DNA from: Candidatus Latescibacterota bacterium | Lineage (GTDB): Bacteria > Latescibacterota > UBA2968 | DNA length: 41,651 bases | Assembly (NCBI GenBank): GCA_021295695.1 | Contig: JAGWBW010000023.1 | Coordinates: forward strand, 4,626 to 46,276 | Direction of reading: 5' to 3' | Shown: in pieces, positions 4,451 to 7,353 of the stretch | How positions within the stretch are numbered: position 1 is the stretch's first letter | How the letters are laid out: each line of letters starts with the position of its first letter | Program-made: the position numbers and the translations under genes | The notes under the pieces: generated by a model | Databases searched by the model: none | What the model was told of the DNA's origin: nothing | Seen by the model: the letters and a program-made list of their open reading frames with translations, nothing else

Positions 4451-5167
4451 CTATTGTCCCAATACATCTTGTTGGAGTTGAGTGATTTCGGAGATGCCCT
4501 TTTGGGCGAGGGCGATCAGGTGTTGCATCTGGTCGAGTGTGAATGGTTTTCCTTCGGCTGTGCCCTGTACCTCGACAAAGTCGCCTTGACCGGTCATGAC
4601 GATATTCATATCCACTTCGGCGGTTGCATCTTCGGCATAACACAAATCGAGCATGGGCGTATTGCCAATGATGCCCACGCTGACAGCGGCGACGGAATCG
4701 CCAAGAGGATTTTCTGTAATACTGCCTTTATTTTTCAGCTTGTTAATCGCATCTATGACTGCAACATAAGCCCCCGAAATTGAGGCTGTGCGGGTACCGC
4801 CATCGGCCTGTAACACATCGCAGTCGATCCAGAGGGTGCGCGAGCCGAGTTTTTTGAGGTCGATTACGGCGCGCAATGCGCGACCAATAAGGCGTTGGAT
4901 TTCCTGGGTTCGCCCCTTAGTACCGCGCGTTTCGCGCTCGCTGCGCGTGTGGGTTGAACGGGGCAACATGGCGTATTCCGCCGTGATCCAGCCCGTGTTT
5001 TTACCCACGAGAAAATGGGGTACGCGATTTTCAACACTCGCTGTGCATATAACGTGTGTGTCACCCATTTTGATCAGTGCCGATCCCTCGGCGTGTTTCA
5101 TAAATCCGCGTTCAATACTCGCGGGACGCAATTGATCTGGGTGGCGTCCATCTATGCGCTGGTTCAT
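4451..5167 (-). CDS. rph: Ribonuclease PH
   Basis: Phosphorolytic 3' exoribonuclease that trims tRNA 3' ends. The 238 residues match the normal length, and the start [19 protein letters not shown] is the family signature. [17 protein letters not shown] and [19 protein letters not shown], which contribute to the phosphate and RNA site, are all present. It sits between the DnaC-like gene and rdgB, with 15 bp and 11 bp gaps, in a minus-strand operon. Confidence 0.96.
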
Positions 5168-5182
5168 AAATGCTCCTCGTTG

Positions 5183-6037
5183 TTATCGCGGATCGATCCA
5201 TTTCTCTTCGGGGTTGCCCAATTCGCGGAAGTCTTGCCCTGTGACGTGAATGATATGACACATTTCGAGAAAACGAGAATAGATGCGCCCCTGTGCGAGG
5301 TCTTTCAATTCATCGGCTTTCTGATTTGTAGTCACAAATGTCAGGCGTCGATGGGCATATCGGGCGTCAATGAGGTTGTAGATGATTTCTAATTCCCATT
5401 CGGTATTGCGCTGCACGCCAAAGTCGTCGATGACGAGATAGGGAACATTGCTCAGTACGTCAATCATGGGCATGGCCTGCCCATGTGTATCACTGCTTTC
5501 GTCAAATGTGTGTCTGAGTTCCTGGAAGCTCTTTGAGAGTGAGATGAATTTGCCGGGTTTCACAAATCGAAAAATGAGTTCGTTGAGCAAGATATAGGCA
5601 AAATAGGTTTTTCCTCGACCTGGCTCACCCCACAAATAGAAGCCTTTAATTGAGGCTTTATTGCCGTAAATATTATCGACTAAGGTGCTGAAATAGGACT
5701 TGAGGAGTGTCGCGCCCTGGATGATCTGCCCATTATCGTGCTGCACTTTAAAGTCCTCTAAGAACTTAAAGCGAAAAGGCGCAGGTATGCCCGATTTACG
5801 AATGTATTTGTCAATGTGGATTACCTTCATCCGAAAGGGATAACATGGGCACCAGCTGGGTTCGCCGCTCTTTGTATTCAGGATCATAAAAGGCGACGTA
5901 CCGCCGCATCGACAGTGTTCGAGGACTTCTGAAGAGAGTTTGATTTTGCCGTGAAGCCCCGCTTCGACATGGGGGTCGTAGTCGTAGCCGAGATCATTGG
6001 GGGGGAGGTCAATTGCTGTTGTTTGTCGAGATGTGAT
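5183..6037 (-). CDS. DnaC/DnaI-like AAA+ ATPase with N-terminal zinc motif, start codon unclear
   Basis: The AAA+ core resembles helicase loaders (DnaC, DnaI, IstB): Walker A in YLWGEPGRGKTYFAY, Walker B in VPYLVIDDFG, and the sensor region RLTFVTTNQK. The first ATG is at 5887. However, the same frame stays open for 51 codons upstream to the smpB stop codon at 6041-6043 and encodes what looks like real protein, including a zinc motif CxC (HCRCGG) that pairs with CPCYP just after 5887. None of those 51 codons is ATG, GTG or TTG. The smpB-end GGAGG at 6044-6048 lies 6 nt before an ATC codon at 6035-6037, which I use as a tentative start. Alternatives are start at 5887, readthrough of the smpB stop, or a sequence error. 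The ATPase call is strong; the 5' end is unresolved. Confidence 0.75.
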   Translation of the reverse strand: MTSRQTTAIDLPPNDLGYDYDPHVEAGLHGKIKLSSEVLEHCRCGGTSPFMILNTKSGEPSWCPCYPFRMKVIHIDKYIRKSGIPAPFRFKFLEDFKVQHDNGQIIQGATLLKSYFSTLVDNIYGNKASIKGFYLWGEPGRGKTYFAYILLNELIFRFVKPGKFISLSKSFQELRHTFDESSDTHGQAMPMIDVLSNVPYLVIDDFGVQRNTEWELEIIYNLIDARYAHRRLTFVTTNQKADELKDLAQGRIYSRFLEMCHIIHVTGQDFRELGNPEEKWIDPR

Positions 6038-6040
6038 GAT

Positions 6041-6511
6041 TTACCTCCCATTGCGGGTGCGTGTCTTCAGTGCTTGTTCGACTTCGCGTTGGGCATCTCG
6101 GAGGGCAATATCGCGCCGCTTGTCAAATTGTTTTTTGCCGCGTGCCACGCCGAGTTCGACTTTGGCTTTGCCGCGTTTGAAATAGAGTTTGAGGGGAATT
6201 AATGTGTGGCCTCTTTCGTTGATATATCCCCTCAGGCGATTGATTTCATGGCGATGGAGCAGCAATTTGCGTTTGCGCTCGGTGTCGTGGTTAAACTGGT
6301 TGCCCTGTGCATATTCGCTGATATGCGTGTTGTGCAAATAGGCTTCTCCGTCTTCAATACGCGCGTAGCCATCTTTCAAATTGGCCCGGCCTTCGCGCAG
6401 AGCTTTGACTTCTGTGCCTCGCAATTGCAAGCCAGCTTCATAAGTGCTGAGGATGTGATAGTCGCGCCGTGCTTTTCGGTTTTGTGCGATAATTTTGATG
6501 TTGTCTGGCAT
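6041..6511 (-). CDS. smpB: SsrA (tmRNA)-binding protein
   Basis: Brings tmRNA to stalled ribosomes for trans-translation. 156 residues, the normal length, with the family core [29 protein letters not shown] and the basic C-terminal tail ([19 protein letters not shown]). The frame has an upstream ATG at 6526, but ATG 6511 is preferred because GGAGGT lies six bases before it and the family begins there. The stop codon is followed in the same frame by the DnaC-like gene. Confidence 0.96.
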
Positions 6512-6522
6512 TAGACCTCCGC

Positions 6523-7353
6523 TCATATATCAGGCTGAAGGATGTGCATGAGATTTTCGAGTTTTTTTGCGCGGTTTGGGTCGTCAAGGTTTAGATATGT
6601 ATATCTGAGGTTGTTCATCATGCGAAAGAGCGTGAAGCTGTTGCTGGCTTCGGCAAAAAGATCGTCAGGAATTTCTTCACCAATGAGATCGATGCATTCA
6701 TTTGCCGTGAGGATCTGCCCTCGATTATGCGGGTCAATATAAATATGTTGATCGCTTTGGATGTATTTGACGATGTAGTGCTTGGGTAAGGCAACGCCTG
6801 AGATAGGCAATTCCAGACGTTGTGCGAGAATGAGATAGACCGCAGAGAGCGTGATTGGCCAGCCGCGCCTGCGATCGAGTACGCGGTTGAAATACGTGTC
6901 GTCGGGATCATGGCGGGTAGATGCGTGAAACCCTTGCTCGTCAAAGAGATAATGATTGAGTGTGCGAATGATGCGAATGGGATGATCGTCGGGAGCAATC
7001 CTGGGCGCGAGTTCAAAGGCCATGTATCCCAGGCGCGTTTTGTAAGTACTTTCATCGAGGTCGGGATATCCGAATCGCGCCAGTGTAAAGACGCCTTCTT
7101 CGAGGGCAATATCGCCGTGTTGATCGCGGGTCAGATTGCGAAACCGCATGTCGAGAGACGGTTCTCTAAATCGCCTGAGTACGCGGCTGACTTCTCGGTG
7201 TGCACGTGAGTCTTCGGCGCAGGCACTGTGGATTTCGCGTGTGGCCTTCTCGCCCAAATCATACAGTTTTTGGCGCATGCGATCTGCAATGCCGGGCGTG
7301 GCGTCCGATAGAAGCGATACAATGGCGCGGATTTGTTCGGGATGGAGTTTCAT
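6523..7353 (-). CDS. SirB1-family transglutaminase-like protein
   Basis: 276 residues with the Transglut_core2 (SirB1) fold. The conserved stretch is [20 protein letters not shown], followed by [11 protein letters not shown] and [11 protein letters not shown]. Proteins of this group are transglutaminase-like but generally lack the catalytic Cys; here too I see no Cys at the active-site position, so an enzymatic role is unlikely. The N-terminal 100 residues are helical and charged. It overlaps the mnmG stop by four bases (ATGA), so it is translationally coupled to mnmG. The cellular role is unknown. Confidence 0.8.

What the first reader, a model, noticed from the sequence alone, without database searches (positions are those of the whole stretch)
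5183..6043. DnaC-like ATPase frame begins right after the smpB stop with no standard start codon
The smpB stop TAA (6041-6043) and the DnaC-like frame are in the same reading frame. The next 51 codons contain no ATG, GTG or TTG, yet encode convincing protein, including CxC (HCRCGG) that pairs with CPCYP after the first ATG to form a zinc site. Starting at ATG 5887 would discard half of that site. The only ribosome-like site is GGAGG at 6044-6048, 6 nt from an ATC. This could be a rare AUC start, a coupled restart after SmpB, stop readthrough giving an SmpB-ATPase fusion, or a sequence error.
Basis: partly seen in the sequence, partly recalled or inferred. Interest (0 to 1): 0.75.

Follow-up and report, generated by a model that had tools for sequence, protein, structure and literature searches.

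The report
Conserved rare AUC start after smpB
A DnaC-like ATPase gene in a group of uncultured bacteria has lost every ordinary start codon and most likely begins at an AUC codon just behind the end of the gene before it, which gene-finding software would probably miss.

Summary
From the smpB stop TAA (6041-6043) to ATG 5887 the frame has 51 codons without ATG, GTG or TTG. It is not a sequence error: 10 of 11 genomes of the genus, one a single-contig chromosome, keep GGGAGG-TAA-AT[C/T]-ATC and have no canonical in-frame start before codon 27. Codons 10-51 are under protein-level constraint like those after the ATG (pN/pS 0.36 and 0.30), and four cysteines are invariant in 27 of 27 aligned sequences, so the protein does not begin at 5887. 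Stop readthrough fails in one relative, where a one-base difference puts smpB and the ATPase in different frames. An out-of-frame ATG (6051) plus slippage on a C run fails in several relatives. What remains is initiation at AUC, most likely 6035-6037, 6 nt after GGAGG (5 nt in one relative), probably by a ribosome that has just finished smpB. The 20 loci read outside this clade, the sister genome among them, have an in-frame canonical codon. The genus's infC is also best read as AUC-started. AUC starts are known (infC in Streptomyces, PMC5472188): a new member of a known kind. Coupling and IF3 control are inferred.

The parts
6041..6511 (-). smpB (SsrA-binding protein); the likely start is the ATG after GGAGG, though the open frame has an earlier ATG at 6526; stop TAA 6043-6041
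   Evidence: Pfam SmpB 201.9 bits, NCBIfam SmpB 209.3 bits, both over the cut-offs; start choice read by eye from the sequence
6044..6049 (-). GGGAGG, Shine-Dalgarno-like site formed by the last two sense codons of smpB
   Evidence: invariant in 10 of 10 AUC-clade genomes; sister genome G009 lacks these two codons; the 16S-like 3' tail GGATCACCTCCTTT is present once in the genome
6035..6037 (-). proposed AUC start codon (codon 2 of the open frame)
   Evidence: ATC in 10 of 10; 6 nt after GGAGG in 9 and 5 nt in G004; no canonical start near
6038..6040 (-). alternative start codon (codon 1, ATC or ATT), 3 nt from GGAGG (2 nt in G004)
   Evidence: ATC in 8, ATT in 2 of 10 genomes
5183..6037 (-). 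DnaC/DnaI-like AAA+ ATPase, 284 aa plus stop if started at the second ATC
   Evidence: PHROG 50 DnaC-like helicase loader, residues 39-278, E 1.3e-48; solved DnaC AAA+ chains
5843..5914 (-). putative metal site, CxC (5914-5906) and CPC (5851-5843), on both sides of ATG 5887
   Evidence: C42, C44, C63, C65 (284-aa numbering) invariant in 27 of 27 aligned sequences, own included
5885..5887 (-). first in-frame canonical start codon, ATG: the likely software call, rejected as the true start
   Evidence: protein-level constraint continues upstream of it
6049..6051 (-). out-of-frame ATG overlapping the end of smpB; decoy
   Evidence: of the 10 AUC-clade genomes, ATG in the window's own, GTG in six, neither in three

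Best explanation
The ATPase is translated from an AUC start codon, most likely 6037-6035, placed by the GGGAGG that forms the last two codons of smpB. A ribosome that terminates smpB at the adjacent TAA, or a new 30S subunit bound to the same GGGAGG, starts with fMet on AUC. Shown here: the conserved layout, the coding constraint upstream of ATG 5887, and the failure of the readthrough and frameshift readings. Inferred: the exact codon, coupling to smpB, and low, IF3-sensitive expression as for other noncanonical starts.
For: 10 of 11 genus genomes keep GGGAGG TAA AT[C/T] ATC with no canonical in-frame start before codon 27. The second ATC is ATC in 10 of 10 and sits 5-6 nt from GGAGG, while the first varies between ATC and ATT and in G004 is only 2 nt away. 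pN/pS is 0.36 over codons 10-51 against 0.30 over codons 52-99; the two other frames give 1.01 and 1.45 over codons 10-51. All 20 loci read outside this clade have an in-frame ATG, GTG or TTG before the conserved core; counted back from the IDLP-like motif, the ATG of sister G009 lies one codon before the ATC pair. The same genus's infC reads best as GGAGG followed by AUC in 10 of 10 loci read, although 9 of them also have an in-frame GTG inside the GGAGGTG.
Against: No protein or ribosome data exist here. Codons 3-9 show no amino-acid constraint (pN/pS 3.8, few changes), as expected of a loose tail but also of an untranslated stretch, so a start at ATT codon 10 is not excluded; it is invariant, but I saw no conserved purine-rich site before it. 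Isolated RNA folds mostly hide the GGGAGG in 10 of 10 (unpaired probability 0.00-0.16), about as synonymous shuffles do, so access may be poor without smpB translation. The one-clade grouping of the AUC genomes has weak support (80/53).
Confidence: 0.75

Rival explanations
1. Initiation at AUU codon 10 (6013-6011), with codons 1-9 an untranslated leader.
For: ATT is invariant in 10 of 10 and protein-level constraint becomes visible from there; AUU (written ATT) is the E. coli infC start (PMC5472188, passage seen).
Against: No conserved purine-rich site before it (by eye); 30 nt from GGAGG; the codon lies in a peptide motif (IDLP-like) shared with ATG-started relatives such as G009, G014, G013, G019 and G016, whose ATG lies 10 or more codons upstream of it.
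Confidence: 0.1
2. Readthrough of the smpB TAA gives an SmpB-ATPase fusion.
For: In 9 of 10 AUC-clade genomes the two frames are the same, and the stop is TAA in 10 of 10.
Against: In G004 one base fewer puts smpB and the ATPase in different frames; the 20 loci read outside the clade have an in-frame canonical codon of their own.
Confidence: 0.02
3. Initiation at the out-of-frame ATG 6051, with a frameshift or a base-call error in the run of seven C (6005-5999).
For: The frame opened by that ATG runs through the C run and could join the ATPase frame after a shift.
Against: The site is GTG in six and neither ATG nor GTG in three of the 10 genomes; the C run is interrupted in G006 and G003 and one shorter in G005. 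Separate assemblies agree, including a single-contig chromosome.
Confidence: 0.02
4. The protein starts at ATG 5887, or the upstream frame is decayed.
For: It is the first canonical codon in the frame.
Against: pN/pS 0.36 upstream of it; invariant C42, C44 and other invariant residues before it; PHROG 50 homology begins at residue 39; only a 4-nt SD match at 9 nt before the same ATG in G008.
Confidence: 0.03

Closest known systems
infC (translation initiation factor IF3) with AUU or AUC start
   Same: Start codon other than AUG, GUG or UUG. The mBio paper says ATT in E. coli and ATC in Streptomyces (PMC5472188, passages seen). The infC of this very genus also reads best as AUC behind GGAGG.
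   Different: infC is autoregulated by its own product; the ATPase is not IF3, and its start abuts the smpB stop.
Streptomyces sigR GTC start, repressed by IF3
   Same: A non-infC gene with a noncanonical start that the paper says is misannotated in all available streptomycete genomes (PMC5472188, passages seen).
   Different: The codon is GTC, the gene encodes a sigma factor, and there is direct experimental proof.
Start codon switches to AUU or CUG in prokaryotes
   Same: A 2017 reconstruction reports rare switches: of 61,358 ancestral AUG starts, 1 to AUU and 2 to CUG (PMC5622118, passage seen).
   Different: The word AUC does not occur in that main text (term count 0); here 10 genomes keep AUC.
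DnaC/DnaI helicase loaders
   Same: AAA+ core with Walker A-like GEPGRGKT and Walker B-like LVIDDFG (motif names recalled); best solved match is DnaC 6qel.
   Different: Does not reach any NCBIfam DnaC/DnaI cut-off; DciA is also present in 11 of 11 genus genomes.

Membership tests
Gene with a noncanonical AUN start (infC type) | No ATG, GTG or TTG at the protein's start | tested here: met
   10 of 10 AUC-clade genomes, no in-frame canonical start before codon 27
Gene with a noncanonical AUN start (infC type) | Shine-Dalgarno site at working distance from the AUN codon | tested here: met
   GGAGG 5-6 nt before the second ATC in 10 of 10; matching 16S-like tail in the genome
Gene with a noncanonical AUN start (infC type) | Repression by IF3 | not testable with these tools
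   needs an IF3 fidelity mutant or added IF3
Gene with a noncanonical AUN start (infC type) | fMet found at that codon in the protein | not testable with these tools
   needs N-terminal peptides or start-site profiling
Translationally coupled gene pair | Start site abuts or overlaps the upstream stop, with the ribosome site inside the upstream gene | tested here: met
   in some class members (such as L024, L026, L028, L030) a GTG overlaps what reads as the smpB TGA (by eye)
Translationally coupled gene pair | Downstream expression depends on translation of the upstream gene | not testable with these tools
   needs a reporter; the folding test gave no selected hairpin
Stop-readthrough fusion | Both genes in one frame in all carriers | tested here: not met
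   G004 frames differ
DnaC/DnaI helicase loader | DnaC-type AAA+ ATPase core | tested here: met
   PHROG 50 E 1.3e-48; DnaC 6qel E 5.8e-19 with profile A1
DnaC/DnaI helicase loader | NCBIfam curated cut-off for a loader family | tested here: not met
   PRK08116 138.2 of 189; DnaC PRK07952 59.4 of 357; DnaI PRK08939 42.6 of 228 bits
DnaC/DnaI helicase loader | DnaI-type N-terminal zinc domain that binds the helicase | tested here: inconclusive
   four invariant Cys, but the profile match to DnaI 4m4w covers only positions 117-277 and the model had mean pLDDT 38.7
IS21 helper ATPase (IstB) | IstB-type ATPase over the curated cut-offs | tested here: not met
   Pfam IstB_IS21 33.5 over 24.1 bits is met, but NCBIfam IS21 helper is 47.6 of 200
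IS21 helper ATPase (IstB) | Transposase gene beside it | not tested
   upstream neighbour is smpB; the downstream ORF 4451-5167 was not searched (recalled as RNase PH from its sequence)

The most novel reading that the evidence does not exclude
A clade of Latescibacterota-like bacteria has fixed an AUC start on a DnaC-like loader that is translated only by ribosomes finishing smpB and is held down by IF3, as infC is. Output of a replication protein would then follow ribosome rescue and initiation-factor state.
Probability: 0.2. Interest if true: 0.65.

Novelty: new member of a known kind. Interest (0 to 1): 0.5.

Why it matters
Well-characterized noncanonical starts are rare (so PMC5472188 says of infC, passage seen), and gene finding that assumes ATG, GTG and TTG cannot see them. 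Here comparison of 10 genomes shows one by elimination: the canonical start is gone, the protein is kept, and the ribosome site lies inside the neighbouring gene. It is a natural experiment on how a start codon can be replaced, and a warning that the N-terminal part of this protein is probably cut off in annotation (no annotation of these genomes was seen). The listings showed no paper on it.

Tried and rejected
Stop readthrough: rejected through G004. Out-of-frame ATG 6051 plus slippage on seven C, or a base error: rejected through relatives. Start at 5887: rejected by codon constraint and invariant residues.

SD-sequestering hairpin: GGGAGGU can pair with ACCUCCC of codons 11-13 in the window, but the fold is no better than shuffles (z -0.09), predicted partners differ among genomes, and synonymous shuffles hide the site about as often (fraction at or below the real value 0.18-0.59 over 10 genomes). 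Not claimed. The codon table behind those shuffles counted smpB from 6520, nine bases before the start I prefer; the effect is negligible.

Lineage-wide use of AUC: in 400 kb of G008, of 221 predicted genes, 117 had a canonical start with an SD match of 5 or more, 83 had a canonical codon without such a match and no noncanonical rival, and 21 had a noncanonical codon with such an SD and no canonical one. By eye only the ATPase of these 21 lacks a plausible canonical start at its coding onset; one other (4236417) has its first ATG at codon 86, but its coding onset scores later (102). Noncanonical starts without a strong SD would be missed. A first, stricter score found 0 genes and missed the ATPase itself, so it is uninformative.

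Structure: AlphaFold2 on 7 close sequences gave mean pLDDT 38.7; no fold search was made. A first infC script picked the frame wrongly and was redone.

Not examined: the relatives search matched 58 of 100 genomes, of which 30 gave loci that I read (L001-L030); the other 28 were not read at sequence level. L037-L039, weak matches, were not used. Of 12 infC loci I read 10; those of G001, split over two contigs (L051, L052), were not read. Alignment A1 took 27 of 30 loci (L023, L024 and L027 left out because my start choice there was doubtful). In A1 the rows L020, L026, L028 and L030 start at a TTG although an ATG or GTG lies upstream.

Full report
What is there. On the minus strand smpB ends GGG AGG TAA (6049-6041). 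The next codons in the same frame are ATC ATC ACA, and the frame stays open for 285 sense codons, with its stop at 5185-5183. No ATG, GTG or TTG occurs before codon 52 (5887). The ATPase is followed by the ORF 4451-5167 (recalled as RNase PH; no call named it). Pfam and NCBIfam confirm smpB. The ATPase is a DnaC-like AAA+ protein (PHROG 50, E 1.3e-48 over residues 39-278 of the 284-aa form; DnaC chains in the PDB), though it reaches none of the 12 NCBIfam cut-offs listed.

Is it an error? The own genome holds one match. All 15 genomes searched in the family carry the gene, 11 of them in the genus. In 10 of the 11 genus genomes smpB ends GGGAGGTAA and the ATPase begins AT[C/T] ATC A[C/T]A. None of the 10 has an in-frame ATG, GTG or TTG before codon 27. 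GTG appears at codon 27 in G002, G004 and G003 and at codon 39 in G004 and G007 (Val codons, not shared by all). ATG 52 (55 in G005, which has three extra codons) is common to all 10. A base error or a binning artefact is a very unlikely explanation.

Is the upstream stretch protein? Over the 10 genomes pN/pS in the ATPase frame is 0.36 for codons 10-51 and 0.30 for codons 52-99; in the other two frames codons 10-51 give 1.01 and 1.45. Across 27 aligned sequences from the genus to the class (the own one included; the others 43-94% identical to it), G17, Y20, D21, G27, G30, V38, C42, C44 and P49 (284-aa numbering), all upstream of Met 51, are invariant, as are C63 and C65 after it. I therefore reject a start at 5887. 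Codons 3-9 vary freely (pN/pS 3.8); the canonical-start relatives also have a variable tail there.

Which start? Readthrough needs one frame for both genes. In G004 one base is missing between GGGAGG and ATT ATC, so the smpB stop and the ATPase are in different frames, which excludes a fusion there. The out-of-frame ATG 6051 is GTG in G010, G006, G005, G002, G008 and G004, and neither ATG nor GTG in G007, G003 and G001. The run of seven C is interrupted in G006 and G003 and one shorter in G005. What all 10 share is GGAGG and, 5-6 nt on, ATC. The first codon of the pair is ATC in eight and ATT in two, and sits only 2-3 nt from GGAGG. ATT codon 10 is invariant too, but I see no such site before it. 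I take the second ATC (6037-6035) as the start, with fMet-Thr-Ser-Arg-Gln as the N-terminus.

Origin. Sister genome G009 has smpB ending without Gly-Arg, a TGA, and an in-frame ATG AAC AAC 46 codons later. Counted back from the IDLP-like motif, that ATG lies one codon before the ATC pair. All 20 loci read outside the AUC clade (L011-L030) have an ATG, GTG or TTG in frame before the conserved core; that these codons are the true starts was not tested. On the protein tree the 10 AUC genomes fall on one side of a branch, but with weak support (80/53). The simple reading is that loss of the smpB-ATPase spacer took the ATG away and left a GGGAGG directly in front of ATC; this is inference.

Generality. 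infC is found in 11 of 11 genus genomes. In the 10 loci read, the sequence is GGAGGTG, a few bases, then ATC AAT AGA GG. In 9 of 10 an in-frame GTG lies three codons upstream of that ATC, inside the GGAGGTG; in G009 the nearest in-frame canonical codon is a TTG 44 codons upstream. AUC infC starts are known in Streptomyces (PMC5472188, passage seen). In 400 kb of G008 the ATPase was the only one of 221 predicted genes that I judged to need a noncanonical start (partly by eye; one search failed as a test). So this does not look like a habit of the whole genome, within the limits of that survey.

How it likely works. A ribosome ending smpB at TAA stands by the GGGAGG and has AUC beside it, so restart there is easy. 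In some other class members a GTG overlaps what reads as the smpB TGA, so the junction may have been coupled before. AUC should give low output that depends on IF3, by analogy with infC and sigR (PMC5472188). Neither coupling nor IF3 control was tested. Folding gave no support for a selected hairpin. The protein may be a loader of DnaB-type helicase, but DciA is present in 11 of 11 genus genomes, so it need not be the only or essential loader. The cysteines recall the zinc-binding N-terminal domain of DnaI (PMC3791466, passages seen), but the profile match to DnaI covers only the AAA+ part.

Verdict. It is a new member of a known kind.

Noticed in passing
L041-L050 (infC loci): infC of this genus reads best as AUC-started: GGAGGTG, a few bases, ATC AAT AGA GG in 10 of 10 loci read; gene callers might take the in-frame GTG inside the ribosome site that 9 of them have.
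   Followed up: partly
6044-6049: The last two codons of smpB (Gly-Arg, GGG AGG) are extra relative to sister G009, so smpB seems to have gained two residues that double as the ribosome site of the next gene.
   Followed up: partly
L012, L013, L015, L016, L019: In several relatives the ATPase follows another gene whose end reads like an N-acetylmuramoyl-L-alanine amidase (name recalled, not searched) and overlaps the ATG; L014 seems to keep a remnant of it between smpB and the ATPase (by eye).
   Followed up: no
L010 (G001): The ATPase has a longer C-terminus (305 aa from the second ATC) than most of its close relatives (284).
   Followed up: no
L004 (G005): Three extra codons next to the CxC motif (CRYCQCGG for CRCGG), adding a third cysteine there.
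   Followed up: no
G000-G010: DciA is present in 11 of 11 genus genomes alongside the DnaC-like ATPase.
   Followed up: partly
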